From: Lachnospiraceae bacterium
GTDB taxonomy: Bacteria > Bacillota > Clostridia > Lachnospirales > Lachnospiraceae
Assembly (NCBI GenBank): GCA_024681795.1
Contig: JAILAD010000051.1
Span: forward strand, 1-64,000
DNA length: 64,000 bases
Reading direction: 5' to 3'
Shown here: piece by piece, positions 49,267 to 54,142 of the stretch
Layout: each line of letters starts with the position of its first letter
How positions within the stretch are numbered: position 1 is the stretch's first letter
Translations under genes and position numbers: made by a program
Notes under the pieces: model-generated
What the model saw: the letters and a program-made list of their open reading frames with translations, nothing else
Database searches by the model: none
Told to the model about the DNA's origin: nothing

Positions 49267-49350
49267 AGATTCATTATAACATTGCAAGGAAAGATGTAGT
49301 ATAATATATGGGTATATTTTTGCAAATGGCAAAAATAAGGAGCGAAAACG

Positions 49351-50004
49351 ATGAAAAATTATGAGAGCAGCTTACGAAATGACAAAGTGAGCCTGAAATT
49401 CAGAAAAAGTGCCCGGGACCTGTATTCGGCAGGCATCGGAATTATGGGGTACGCTGTCTGGGGTGTGCTGAGTGTATTACTGCAATATTATTTTGATTCG
49501 AACAATATGCTGGATGCTTTAAAGGCATCCGTAAAATCGTTCATATCGAATATTAAAATGATAGACGGTACCGCAACCAAAGTAGTGTTTGCCATTGTGG
49601 TAATTTTAATTGTACTTTTTATTCTGTCTCTTATTCTCGGTGTGACGATGCTGGAGGTATATATCGGTTATACGGCCTGCAGGGAATGCCTAGGGAAAAA
49701 GCGTGGTGTTGTATATATCATTCTGGCATTTTTTCTGGTCCTCATTAATCTGTTTGCCGCCGTCAGCAATGCTTATGCTATCAGCAGCATGATAAGGGGC
49801 AACGATTTTTATATCGACAAATATTTTGATACGGACGGAATCTTTGAATTTTTAACCAGATTGTTTAACATTTCTTTGAAGGATTTCGCATCCCTGTTAC
49901 TTTCCTTAACCAATGCAGTGATCGGAATCGAATTAATTGTAAATGCATTCAAAGTAAAGGCACTTCGGAAAAAAATGGCAGGAGGTGGTATCAGTGAACA
50001 CTGA
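49351..50004 (+). CDS. Multi-pass membrane protein, first gene of the TIR cassette
   Basis: About four TMs; RBS aaggag; overlaps the next CDS. Confidence 0.75.
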   Translation: MKNYESSLRNDKVSLKFRKSARDLYSAGIGIMGYAVWGVLSVLLQYYFDSNNMLDALKASVKSFISNIKMIDGTATKVVFAIVVILIVLFILSLILGVTMLEVYIGYTACRECLGKKRGVVYIILAFFLVLINLFAAVSNAYAISSMIRGNDFYIDKYFDTDGIFEFLTRLFNISLKDFASLLLSLTNAVIGIELIVNAFKVKALRKKMAGGGISEH

Positions 50005-51163
50005 TTTTCATTATTATGCGACTTACTGCACTGCCGTTCTGGCCGGCTATTCCCACGAAGAAGCCTGCGAAATATGCTACAGTGCCCAGTTTGTGGATTT
50101 TTGCTCAAAGACTTTTTTATCCAGCATTAAGGGCCCGTTATCGGCGGCTACATCTCAGCTTGCGGTGGAACTGGTGGAGCAGAAGACGGACATCCTGGGG
50201 CTTCAGGATATTACCAGAATCTGGTCGTCCTTCCATTTCCTGCCGTATGATTTACATGCGAAGAAAAAACACTGTTCGAGAATTTATCTGAACAAATACC
50301 GGTTAATCTGCAATTCAAACGGAAAGCTGGTTGCAGATACCGTGAATCTGGCAAAAAACAAAACGCTCCAGGCAGTCGGAATTGCGATGCATGTGACAGC
50401 AGATACCTGGGCGCATAAGTATTTTGCGGGAACCCCTTCGATGGTAATCAACAATACGGACCGGTTTTTCTATGAGGTCCTTCCGGAAGGAGATTCCTAT
50501 TCCGTCAGACAGCTGAAATTTTCCCATAACCCCGGTGCAAAGGATGATCCGGAAAACGGAGTCTATGTCAATTCCCTTTACCAGACCAGTGAAAACACGG
50601 TTATGAATTTAGGACACGGAAGAGCGGGACATCTTCCGGATTACAGTTTTATCCGCTATAAATATCTGCCGGCATGGGCTGATTATGAGGAGGTTTTAAA
50701 GGATAATCCGTCGGATTATCTGCATGCCTTCGCCCAGCTGGTTTACGCAATGCGTTATATCCGGGGAGAGGTTGAAAATTTTGAATTAAATACCTATGCA
50801 TGGGATATCATCGAACCTTACCGCGGGGAAATCGAAACAATACTGGAAAAACGGCAGACGGACGATGCTGCCGACTGGAAGGCGCTCGGGGAGAAAATAT
50901 CGGGCAAAACCATACCCGATTTTGACATTGACCGGTATAAAGAGGAGTATAAAACAGCGTCAAAAGAAGAAAAGAACAATACCTTTCTCGGAAAATTTAT
51001 TCTGGGCGCGCTTGCGCAAAAAAGCATGGTTACGGGTAAAATCTACAAATCCGGTAATCCGATTGCGGGTGTTTCCGTTGATTATAAGAAAAACGGATTT
51101 GCCGGAATTAAGGATTATATGAAGCTGATAGAATATGCGAACGGAGGAAAAGACGATGAGTAA
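49994..51163 (+). CDS. DUF6765-like putative metal-dependent hydrolase (zinc phospholipase C-like)
   Basis: N-terminal MNTDFHYYATYCTAVLAGYSHEEA and AQFVDF, later HVTADTWAHKYFAG His/Asp motifs; GTG 49994 favoured over 49985. Confidence 0.72.
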   Translation: MNTDFHYYATYCTAVLAGYSHEEACEICYSAQFVDFCSKTFLSSIKGPLSAATSQLAVELVEQKTDILGLQDITRIWSSFHFLPYDLHAKKKHCSRIYLNKYRLICNSNGKLVADTVNLAKNKTLQAVGIAMHVTADTWAHKYFAGTPSMVINNTDRFFYEVLPEGDSYSVRQLKFSHNPGAKDDPENGVYVNSLYQTSENTVMNLGHGRAGHLPDYSFIRYKYLPAWADYEEVLKDNPSDYLHAFAQLVYAMRYIRGEVENFELNTYAWDIIEPYRGEIETILEKRQTDDAADWKALGEKISGKTIPDFDIDRYKEEYKTASKEEKNNTFLGKFILGALAQKSMVTGKIYKSGNPIAGVSVDYKKNGFAGIKDYMKLIEYANGGKDDE

Positions 51164-51698
51164 GGGAAAACGTGTCGCTTCGTTTCTGAGCGGTATTATC
51201 ACAATTCTTTTAAGCTTTTTGATGTTCTATTTTCCAAAACTCGGAATGATGATTATCGTGTTCATTATTTCCTTTACCCTTTTGGGATACGGAACCAGAC
51301 TTTTGACACATTATTCCACACTTTCCAGGCATATGGTCGGCGGCAAGGTTATTTTGTACATCGGCATGGTGATTTTTAATCTCGGAATTCTTACATTAAC
51401 CGCAGCCAGTGTCGGAAAACTGCCGGTTTTCATTTACCTGTTTGTTTTATTTATATTTACCGGTGCTTTGGACATTATGAAAGCATTTGAAGAAAAGAAG
51501 AACAAAGCACGGTTCTGGTTCTGGCGTCTGCTTTTCGGACTGTTTGCGGTGATGCTCGGAATCCTTTCGGTAGTCAGCTGCTTTGTATTAAAATCATCGG
51601 AAGGACTGAACTTTCTTTTCTGTACCGTTCTTTTTTATTCCGGATTTGTCAGAATTATCAAAGCATTCCGTAAGACTGCGATTGTTTATATTCAGTAA
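51156..51698 (+). CDS. HdeD/DUF308-like membrane protein
   Basis: Repeated paired TM segments; ATG 51156 overlaps the upstream stop. Confidence 0.72.
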   Translation: MSKGKRVASFLSGIITILLSFLMFYFPKLGMMIIVFIISFTLLGYGTRLLTHYSTLSRHMVGGKVILYIGMVIFNLGILTLTAASVGKLPVFIYLFVLFIFTGALDIMKAFEEKKNKARFWFWRLLFGLFAVMLGILSVVSCFVLKSSEGLNFLFCTVLFYSGFVRIIKAFRKTAIVYIQ

Positions 51699-51721
51699 AA
51701 GAAACATGAGGAGAGAATAGC

Positions 51722-54142
51722 GTGTCCGATCAGGTCAGATATGATGCCTTTATCAGTTACAGACACTGTAGCCCCGATAAAGAAATCGCCGAAAATTTGC
51801 ATAAGGCCCTGGAGAATTTCCGCCTGCCCCATGCTCTTTCGAAGAAAGTCGGAAAGAGAAAACTGGAACGGGTTTTTCGTGATGAAGCGGAACTCGCGGT
51901 AAGTGCCGAGCTTTCCGAAGAAATCGAAAAAGCACTTCTTTCCTCCGAGTACTTAATCGTAGTCTGTACTCCGAGGCTTCAGGAATCCGAGTGGTGCATG
52001 AAGGAAATCGATACCTTTTTAAAAATTTCCGACCGGAATCACATCCTGTTAGTCCTGGGAGAAGGAGAACCGGAAGAATCATTTCCTGAAATATTAACTT
52101 ACGAGGATGTGGAGAAAATAACCGGGGACGGGCAGATTTTTACCGTTCGCGAAAAGAGGGAACCTCTTGCGGGAGACTGCAGGGGAGAGACAAAAAAGAA
52201 ACGGAAAGAGGCGTTTAAGAATACCGTACTGCGTCTTTGTGCAACCATGTTCGGTGTTCGCTTCGATGATTTAAAACAGCGTCAGAAAGAGCGGAAAATG
52301 CGGACAAATGCTGTTGTTTCCGGTCTGATTTTTCTTGTTGTATTCTGTACTGCGGCACAGAATACTTATTTCTTAATTCAAACCCATAACCAGAATATAA
52401 TAATCATGGATAAACTTGCAACGATTACGGCCAGTTCTTCTCAGGAACTTTTGAACGACGGACGGAGAATGGATGCCATGTATGCCGCAAGAAGCGTACT
52501 TCCGGATACGGACAAAGAAGGATATAACGAGGATGCTTACAGGGTTCTTCAGGATGCAATGAATCTGTATATGTCCCCGAGTATTTATGCTCCGGAAAAA
52601 ACAATTCCGATTTATCCGGATACGGGAAAACTGAATGCGGATGCAAGTCTTTTACTTTGTCACGACAATTCCTGTTTTTACAGTGTGACAGAAGTGAAGA
52701 CGGGAGATGAAATCTGCAATTTTGAAGCGGATGAAACGACGGTAGTTGAGTTCAGCGGGAAAAATGGAATTCTGAAGTATGACGGTAACGAATTGATTTA
52801 TTTGAATCCGTATACGGGGGAGGAAAAAGAAATTGTGGTTCTGAAACTCGATCCCGAAAAAGCTTCGTATCAGATTTGTTCCGTTCCGGACGGCAGTATC
52901 TCCGAGGTTGTATTAAATGATGCCGTATATGCGGTTTCAGACGGGGAAATACTTTATAAACTGAATAAAGAATTACTGAAGATAGGAAAAGATGAATATA
53001 TCAGCAATCTCTCTTTTTCGGAAGACGGATTATACGGTGTCATCGGTATTTTGGAAAAAGATGTTTATACCCACGTAAGAATGATTGCGTTTGAAACCGT
53101 AAGCGGAAAGATTCTGGCAAGGTTTGACGATGACTGTGAAAATGAAGAGATTTTATCGGACGTTGTTCCCGGTGAGAAAGGATTCTTTTATCTGATAACA
53201 ACGGATGATAATTTATCGATTATCCGGTTTTTTGATTATAAAAAAAATAAAATAACCGGGGAGTATAAACTTACGGGCGAATATTATTGCAATATGTCCT
53301 GGATTGGCGACGTAATCGGTGTCTATTCTTCGGAACAGATTGCATTATTTGATTCGAACCTGAATTTACTTGCGCAGCGCGGAAATACAGGTTTTCCGGT
53401 CGGAGTTCTTGAGTATGAGGGTACGCTTGCATATATATTACCGGACGGAAAAATGTATTTCTGGGATAAGGAATATCAGTCATTCTGGTCAAAAAACGTT
53501 TTTCCTCAGAATGTAACCTTTCCGAATTATCTGGATTCAGTGGAATTCAGGAACGATGAATTCTTTGTTTTCCGTGAAGGAAAAGATTATGTCACGGAAT
53601 ATAAACCGTCCCGTACGGAATGCCTGACACCCGCTCAGGAAGCCGAGTTTGACCTTAAGTATTATGATAATCCGTGGCTTGATGAATTCGCGGATGAAAT
53701 TGCACGGACGGAGAATTTTGAGATTGCATCCAGTGCCGTTTCCAGTGACAAAAAATATGCGGTTGTCCAGTCAAAGGATTATCAATTATGGATTTATGAC
53801 GTTGAAACAAAACAACAGGTCCGGAAACTGTATGCGGAAGAGGGAGCTGTTCTCAATTTCTTTTACTGCCAGAAGGCAGACTGCTACCTGATTGAGTTCG
53901 GCGGAATAACGAATTACGGTGTCGGTATTTTTGACAATGAATTTCATTATAATGCATATATTCCGCAGTCCTATATCTCGGGTACCGTAGCAGGAACGGA
54001 CGATCCCGTAATCGCTCTTTCTGATTATCAGGATTATATGATTACCCCGCTAAGTTATGAAGACGTAATAAAAAGGGCGGACGAGGAACTGGCCGGATAC
54101 ACTCCGGATGTAAAGTTTTTGGAGAAGTACGGTCTGAATTAA
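51722..54142 (+). CDS. TIR domain - TM - large beta-propeller-like C-terminal domain (GTG start)
   Basis: RYDAFISYRHCSPDKEIAENLHKALENF, SSEYLIVVCTPRLQESEWCMKEIDTFL; TM VSGLIFLVVFCTAAQNTYFLI; about 550 aa of WD/propeller-like beta sequence. Confidence 0.88.
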   Translation: MSDQVRYDAFISYRHCSPDKEIAENLHKALENFRLPHALSKKVGKRKLERVFRDEAELAVSAELSEEIEKALLSSEYLIVVCTPRLQESEWCMKEIDTFLKISDRNHILLVLGEGEPEESFPEILTYEDVEKITGDGQIFTVREKREPLAGDCRGETKKKRKEAFKNTVLRLCATMFGVRFDDLKQRQKERKMRTNAVVSGLIFLVVFCTAAQNTYFLIQTHNQNIIIMDKLATITASSSQELLNDGRRMDAMYAARSVLPDTDKEGYNEDAYRVLQDAMNLYMSPSIYAPEKTIPIYPDTGKLNADASLLLCHDNSCFYSVTEVKTGDEICNFEADETTVVEFSGKNGILKYDGNELIYLNPYTGEEKEIVVLKLDPEKASYQICSVPDGSISEVVLNDAVYAVSDGEILYKLNKELLKIGKDEYISNLSFSEDGLYGVIGILEKDVYTHVRMIAFETVSGKILARFDDDCENEEILSDVVPGEKGFFYLITTDDNLSIIRFFDYKKNKITGEYKLTGEYYCNMSWIGDVIGVYSSEQIALFDSNLNLLAQRGNTGFPVGVLEYEGTLAYILPDGKMYFWDKEYQSFWSKNVFPQNVTFPNYLDSVEFRNDEFFVFREGKDYVTEYKPSRTECLTPAQEAEFDLKYYDNPWLDEFADEIARTENFEIASSAVSSDKKYAVVQSKDYQLWIYDVETKQQVRKLYAEEGAVLNFFYCQKADCYLIEFGGITNYGVGIFDNEFHYNAYIPQSYISGTVAGTDDPVIALSDYQDYMITPLSYEDVIKRADEELAGYTPDVKFLEKYGLN

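What the first reader, a model, noticed from the sequence alone, without database searches (positions are those of the whole stretch)
49351..54142. Candidate TIR-based membrane system: membrane protein + DUF6765-like hydrolase + DUF308-like protein + TIR-TM-propeller
Four genes overlap or nearly abut, so are probably co-transcribed. The last product has a cytosolic TIR with SEWCMKE (the SxWCxxE pattern holding the catalytic Glu of NAD-cleaving TIRs), one TM and a large probable outer propeller, i.e. receptor-like topology. The second gene looks like a metal-dependent lipase/hydrolase. Together they could form an envelope-sensing NAD-depleting defence or signalling module not matching known Thoeris layouts.
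Basis: partly seen in the sequence, partly recalled or inferred. Interest (0 to 1): 0.66.

Follow-up and report, generated by a model that had tools for sequence, protein, structure and literature searches.

The report
Membrane TIR receptor beside unrelated cassette
A gut/rumen bacterium carries a receptor-shaped protein (a probable NAD-cleaving TIR domain inside the cell, one membrane helix and a fast-changing beta-propeller probably outside) that happens to sit behind a separate, widely conserved three-gene membrane cassette, so the proposed four-gene system is probably two independent things; the receptor family's true recurring partner appears to be a DHH phosphoesterase encoded elsewhere in the same genome.

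Summary
All four genes are real and correctly placed. They are tightly packed (11-bp overlap, 8-bp overlap, 23-bp gap) and probably co-transcribed. The conserved unit, however, is only the first three genes: 4-TM protein, DUF6765, DUF308. In 80 DUF6765 loci from GTDB genomes, 67 of the 71 with room on both sides keep this trio, and only one, a congener of the window, has the TIR gene. Within the genus a TIR gene lies beside the trio at two unrelated sites, using TIR paralogues from different clades.

The TIR protein belongs to a multi-copy Lachnospiraceae family: cytosolic TIR, one TM helix, WD40-like propeller. The putative catalytic Glu95 is invariant in 54/54 relatives. At the same locus in three species the TIR domain is 81-87% identical but the propeller only 26-36%. 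Elsewhere the family has a recurrent partner, a DHH/DHHA1 phosphoesterase with a C-terminal extension: neighbours in 16 of 21 genomes holding both, in all orientations, including another contig of this genome.

Most likely the TIR protein is a self-contained membrane receptor-enzyme making an NAD-derived signal or depleting NAD, and the trio is an unrelated membrane module. Enzyme activity, ligand and any role in phage defence are untested.

The parts
49276..49305 (+). promoter-like site (ATAACA-18-TATAAT) upstream of gene 1; none on + between gene 1 and the TIR gene
   Evidence: consensus match only
49351..50004 (+). gene 1 of the three-gene cassette: 4-TM membrane protein (MEM), no Pfam family, fast-evolving (about 35% identity to orthologues)
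   Evidence: found upstream of DUF6765 in 74/77 loci with room
49994..51163 (+). gene 2: DUF6765 protein, soluble, no signal peptide, GTG start behind AGGAGG; possible zinc hydrolase
   Evidence: 79-85% identical in the closest congeners
50390..50416 (+). invariant HxxxDxxxH motif of DUF6765 (residues 133-141 from the GTG start), candidate metal ligands together with invariant H6, H81, H208, H213, D216
   Evidence: 49-sequence alignment
51156..51698 (+). gene 3: DUF308 / HdeD-like 6-TM membrane protein
   Evidence: downstream of DUF6765 in 71/74 loci with room
51722..54142 (+). TIR-TM-propeller receptor-like protein, 806 aa
51722..52201 (+). cytosolic TIR domain (residues 1-160)
   Evidence: PF13676, PF01582 and ThsB_TIR above cut-off; plant, PdTIR and AbTIR structures by sequence
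51986..52006 (+). SEWCMKE motif (residues 89-95) with putative catalytic Glu95
   Evidence: S89 54/54, W91 53/54, E95 54/54 in relatives
52322..52378 (+). single TM helix (residues 201-219), N-terminus inside by the positive-inside rule
52577..54046 (+). WD40-type beta-propeller region (about residues 286-775), probably outside the cell, fast-diverging
   Evidence: family profile matches WD40 structures; dN 0.66-0.80 against 0.09-0.14 for the TIR domain

Best explanation
The window holds two functional units that touch. Unit 1 is the conserved cassette MEM-DUF6765-DUF308: two integral membrane proteins and a conserved soluble protein, probably a metal enzyme working at the membrane. Unit 2 is one member of a multi-copy family of single-pass TIR proteins. 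Its propeller, probably outside the membrane, senses an external or envelope cue. Clustering or a shape change then activates the cytosolic TIR domain, which splits NAD+ with Glu95, either giving a nucleotide signal or depleting NAD. In this clade the TIR gene has come to lie at the 3' end of the cassette and is probably co-transcribed with it, but it does not need the cassette. Elsewhere the family's recurring partner is a DHH/DHHA1 phosphoesterase with a C-terminal extension, which could break down or limit the TIR product. Shown: gene content, conservation and independence of the two units, topology signals, glutamate invariance, propeller divergence, DHH linkage. Inferred: NAD cleavage, ligand sensing, role of DHH, biological purpose.
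For: Trio conserved without TIR: MEM upstream 74/77, DUF308 downstream 71/74, both 67/71; TIR in 1/80 loci. TIR paralogues are found in most genomes of the genus, in many contexts. Cassette-adjacent TIRs of the window clade and of G011/G015 belong to different TIR clades. E95 54/54, S89 54/54, W91 53/54. One TM with 5 K/R before and 1 after. The WD40 match comes from the family profile. At one locus in three species, TIR domain dN is 0.09-0.14, like the flanking genes (0.02-0.13), while propeller dN is 0.66-0.80; the same contrast appears in three other orthologue pairs. DHH and TIR co-occur (21 genomes, hypergeometric P 1e-11, not corrected for phylogeny) and are neighbours in 16 of those 21, in this genome with a 4-bp overlap.
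Against: The TIR gene is probably in the same transcript as the trio and the order is kept in G025 and G028. Two separate TIR-cassette juxtapositions among about five cassette lineages of the genus are more than my rough chance estimate allows. There is no direct evidence of NADase activity, and catalytic and scaffold TIRs share much of this motif. The TIR structure model failed (pLDDT 43). The window copy itself has no DHH neighbour. Fast propeller divergence could be relaxed constraint.
Confidence: 0.6

Rival explanations
1. The four genes form one envelope-sensing TIR system, specific to this genus: the cassette makes or guards a membrane state that the propeller monitors.
For: Probable single transcript; order kept in G025 and G028 across near-saturated synonymous divergence; a second TIR paralogue lies at a cassette in G011/G015, separated by a GTPase gene.
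Against: TIR in only 1 of 80 DUF6765 loci; of nine cassette genomes of the genus, G002, G004 and G012 show no TIR at the cassette and G022 cannot be judged because its contig ends; most TIR paralogues have no cassette; the second case has another gene order and a different TIR clade. The flanks are syntenic too, so retained order carries little extra weight.
Confidence: 0.13
2. The TIR domain is a scaffold or adaptor and not an NADase; the protein signals by assembling other TIR or cytosolic proteins.
For: Many TIR domains act by assembly (own knowledge); only sequence motifs support catalysis here.
Against: Putative catalytic Glu95 invariant in 54/54 relatives with Ser89, and Trp91 in 53; nearest solved TIRs include plant TIRs, with PdTIR and AbTIR weaker; recurrent linkage to a phosphoesterase suggests a nucleotide product.
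Confidence: 0.15
3. The propeller diverges because it is under weak constraint or swapped between paralogues by recombination, not because it tracks a changing ligand.
For: The G025 propeller is closer to a non-cassette copy in G028 (dN 0.31) than to the syntenic G028 copy (dN 0.80), so paralogy or exchange has occurred. Synonymous sites are near saturation, so positive selection cannot be tested.
Against: Frames are intact in nearly all copies and parts of the C-terminal tail are conserved in all 14; the contrast recurs in four orthologue sets with a border just after the helical segment.
Confidence: 0.3

Closest known systems
Thoeris (ThsB TIR + ThsA effector)
   Same: ThsB-like TIR domain above the Pfam cut-off (26.4 against 21.2 bits), probable NAD-derived signalling
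   Different: Membrane-spanning with a propeller; none of the four genes is a ThsA-type effector; no PADLOC Thoeris match
TIR-STING, TIR-APAZ (short Ago) and RT-TIR retron effectors
   Same: TIR as probable NADase effector joined to a sensor
   Different: No STING, APAZ or RT domain found; only partial TIR-domain matches to RT-TIR_XII and PDC-S66
Bacterial conflict proteins with STAND/WD40 modules (eLife 2020, PMC7159879) and Apaf-1-type WD40 proteins
   Same: Effector domain joined to a WD40 propeller
   Different: No STAND NTPase in between; a TM helix and short helical segment instead, so receptor-like
Animal Toll-like and IL-1 receptors
   Same: Sensor, single TM, cytosolic TIR layout (PMC7075850 describes theirs)
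   Different: Reverse order (TIR at N-terminus), propeller instead of LRR or Ig; no homology of the whole protein shown
DHH/DHHA1 phosphoesterases (NrnA, DhhP, GdpP group; own knowledge)
   Same: The recurrent partner of this TIR family has DHH (57.6 bits) and a weak DHHA1 domain
   Different: C-terminal extension of about 170 aa without a Pfam match; neighbour of TIR-TM-propeller genes; not adjacent to the window copy
DUF6765 (PF20551), DUF308/HdeD (PF03729), Zn-dependent PLC (PF00882)
   Same: Members of DUF6765 and DUF308; weak resemblance of DUF6765 to PF00882 in 22/49 members
   Different: HdeD equivalog not met (20 of 189 bits); PF00882 below cut-off; no solved fold match

Membership tests
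TIR domain proteins | TIR domain above curated cut-off | tested here: met
   PF13676 45 against 28 bits; PF01582 29.5 against 21.3
NAD-cleaving TIRs | conserved catalytic glutamate | tested here: met
   E95 54/54; aligned with plant TIR SxWCxxE
NAD-cleaving TIRs | NAD+ hydrolase or cyclase activity | not testable with these tools
   needs purified protein
Thoeris | ThsB-like TIR | tested here: met
   PF08937 26.4 against 21.2 bits, domain only
Thoeris | adjacent ThsA-type effector | tested here: not met
   neighbours are DUF6765, DUF308, a 4-TM protein and CitMHS; no PADLOC Thoeris match
WD40-type propeller proteins | WD40 or propeller repeats | tested here: inconclusive
   family profile to WD40 structures E 3e-11; single sequence below Pfam cut-offs; model too poor
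Single-pass membrane receptor topology | TIR inside, propeller outside | tested here: inconclusive
   one TM, positive-inside charge 5 against 1; no experiment
DUF6765 (PF20551) | full-length match above cut-off | tested here: met
   242.7 against 26.6 bits, residues 1-348
Zinc-dependent phospholipase C (PF00882) | match above cut-off | tested here: not met
   14.5 against 26.8 bits; weak hit in 22/49 members, best E 0.0047
HdeD acid-resistance protein | equivalog score | tested here: not met
   20.2 against 189 bits
DHH plus TIR-TM-propeller pair | DHH-extension gene beside the TIR gene | tested here: not met
   absent at the window locus; present at G000:C29 and in 15 other genomes of 21 that hold both
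Anti-phage defence system | protects against phage | not testable with these tools
   no PADLOC system match beyond the TIR domain, none in viral contigs

The most novel reading that the evidence does not exclude
TIR-TM-propeller proteins of Lachnospirales are a Toll-like bacterial receptor family with an invariant cytosolic NAD-cleaving domain and a diversifying extracellular propeller, present as several paralogues per genome, whose NAD-derived signal is made or erased together with a partner DHH phosphoesterase: a two-gene membrane immune or stress system that the defence catalogue searched here does not list.
Probability: 0.3. Interest if true: 0.8.

Novelty: new variant of a known kind. 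Interest (0 to 1): 0.45.

Why it matters
If right, bacteria have a receptor family laid out like Toll-like receptors (variable outer sensor, one TM, conserved cytosolic TIR), kept as several paralogues per genome and linked to a phosphoesterase that could terminate a nucleotide signal. This makes a two-gene DHH-TIR pair directly testable in cultured Lachnospirales. It also shows that operon neighbourhood in one genome misled the partner assignment: the recurrent partner is elsewhere in the same genome.

Tried and rejected
Four-gene system: rejected as a conserved unit. Mobile or viral carriage of the TIR protein: no relatives in IMG/VR. Known defence system: PADLOC gives only TIR-domain fragments. 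GTPase (DUF697) between TIR and cassette in G011/G015 as a partner: it is a common gene of the genus, mostly elsewhere. DUF6765 fold by AlphaFold2 plus Foldseek: model pLDDT 77, pTM 0.84, no PDB match. Full-length TIR model with two sequences: unusable, pLDDT 43. Literature: no held paper on DUF6765, on TIR with DHH, or under TIR-TM-WD40 type names; a TIR survey (PMC7075850) was searched for this architecture without success.
Full report
What is there. Gene 1, 49351-50004, is a 217-aa protein with four predicted TM helices and no Pfam family. Gene 2 starts at GTG 49994 behind AGGAGG and is a DUF6765 protein (PF20551, 242.7 bits, cut-off 26.6), soluble and without a signal peptide. Gene 3 starts at ATG 51156 and is a DUF308 protein (38.6 against 25 bits) with six predicted TM helices. 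Gene 4, 51722-54142, is an 806-aa protein with an N-terminal TIR domain, one TM helix at residues 201-219 and a beta-rich C-terminal part. Genes 1-2 overlap by 11 bp, genes 2-3 by 8 bp, and 23 bp separate genes 3 and 4. No promoter-like site on this strand lies between gene 1 and gene 4, so co-transcription is likely but not shown. Upstream lies a divergent CitMHS transporter. The genes on both sides keep the same order in congeners.

Is the four-gene order conserved? No. DUF6765 relatives were collected from GTDB genomes (537 encode a relative, best 80 kept, mostly rumen Lachnospiraceae, Ruminococcus and Butyrivibrio). With family profiles, the 4-TM protein is upstream in 74 of 77 loci with room, DUF308 downstream in 71 of 74, and both in 67 of 71. 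In 61 relatives, DUF6765 and its DUF308 neighbour occur in the same nine genomes, all of this genus, next to each other. The TIR family occurs in 33 of 61 genomes, often in several copies, beside ksgA and glgB, SpoIIE-type, YfhO and CotH genes. The exact four-gene order is seen in G000, G025 and G028; G022's contig ends after DUF308. In G011 and G015 a TIR gene and a GTPase gene precede the trio. Those TIRs fall in another clade of the family tree than the window TIR, so the two juxtapositions probably arose separately. Two in about five cassette lineages is more than I would expect by chance (a rough estimate, not a test), so a loose genus-level link is not excluded. The GTPase is a common gene of the genus, mostly elsewhere.

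The TIR protein. TIR_2, TIR and ThsB_TIR models all pass their cut-offs. By sequence the nearest solved structures are plant TIRs, with PdTIR and AbTIR weaker. In 54 full-length relatives, Ser89 and Glu95 are invariant and Trp91 is kept in 53. Basic residues precede the TM helix (5 against 1 after it), which suggests that the TIR is inside and the rest outside. A profile of 14 relatives finds WD40 propellers of solved structure; the single sequence does so only weakly. A two-sequence AlphaFold2 model was too poor to use.

Divergence. At the same chromosomal place in three species the TIR domain is 81-87% identical and the propeller 26-36%. dN is 0.09-0.14 against 0.66-0.80, while flanking genes have dN 0.02-0.13. 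Three other orthologue pairs show the same contrast (0.034/0.18, 0.07/0.25, 0.04/0.30). Identity falls just after the helical segment, near residue 281, and rises again in the C-terminal tail. The 4-TM protein of the cassette diverges as fast (dN 0.60-0.75) while DUF6765 does not (0.10-0.13). Synonymous sites are near saturation, so positive selection cannot be tested, and one comparison (G025 with a second G028 copy) shows that paralogues or exchange are involved.

The recurrent partner. Around longer TIR-TM-propeller paralogues a DHH/DHHA1 phosphoesterase of about 510 aa recurs. In 246 genomes of the order, 41 have the long DHH form (judged from the match coverage), 32 have the TIR family, and 21 have both (hypergeometric P 1e-11, uncorrected for phylogeny). 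In 16 of those 21 the two lie within about 5 kb, most of them directly adjacent, in co-directional, reversed and convergent arrangements. In this genome the pair is at G000:C29 with a 4-bp overlap. The window copy has no such neighbour. That a phosphoesterase accompanies a probable NAD-cleaving TIR suggests a nucleotide product that is trimmed or removed; this is inference.

The cassette. DUF6765 has invariant H6, H81, H133-x3-D137-x3-H141, H208, H213 and D216, which fits a metal site. PF00882 (zinc-dependent phospholipase C) appears as a weak second match in 22 of 49 members (best E 0.0047). A fair AlphaFold2 model (pLDDT 77, pTM 0.84) matches no solved structure. 'Lipase/hydrolase' is therefore a lead, not a finding.

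Verdict. A receptor-like TIR protein sits, probably co-transcribed, behind an independent conserved cassette. The membrane-receptor NADase reading is the best account of the TIR protein, but activity, ligand and purpose (defence, stress or other signalling) are open. The defence catalogue searched has no entry for it beyond the TIR domain, and no relative was found in viral contigs.

Noticed in passing
G000:C29:18008-22632 (L146 4009-8633): DHH/DHHA1 phosphoesterase and a 1025-aa TIR-TM-propeller protein overlap by 4 bp in the window's own genome; the pair recurs across several families of the order.
   Followed up: yes
L156 (G001:C25) and L155 (G006:C6): Three and two tandem TIR-TM-propeller genes beside a DHH gene: local expansion of receptor-like paralogues.
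   Followed up: partly
window 49351-50004 and orthologues in L042, L043: The 4-TM cassette protein evolves as fast as the TIR propeller (dN 0.6-0.75) while its neighbour DUF6765 is conserved; unexplained.
   Followed up: partly
L060 (G028:C41) against L042 and L043: The G025 cassette TIR propeller is closer to a non-cassette copy in G028 than to the syntenic copy, suggesting exchange or duplication and loss.
   Followed up: partly
L194, L195, L196 (G095, G106, G074): Next to the DHH-TIR pair lie further proteins that look TIR-like with a hydrophobic segment (cluster c5); judged by eye only.
   Followed up: no
L058 8795-10000: IS605 OrfB / Cas12f-like transposase gene beside a TIR-TM-propeller gene in G017.
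   Followed up: no
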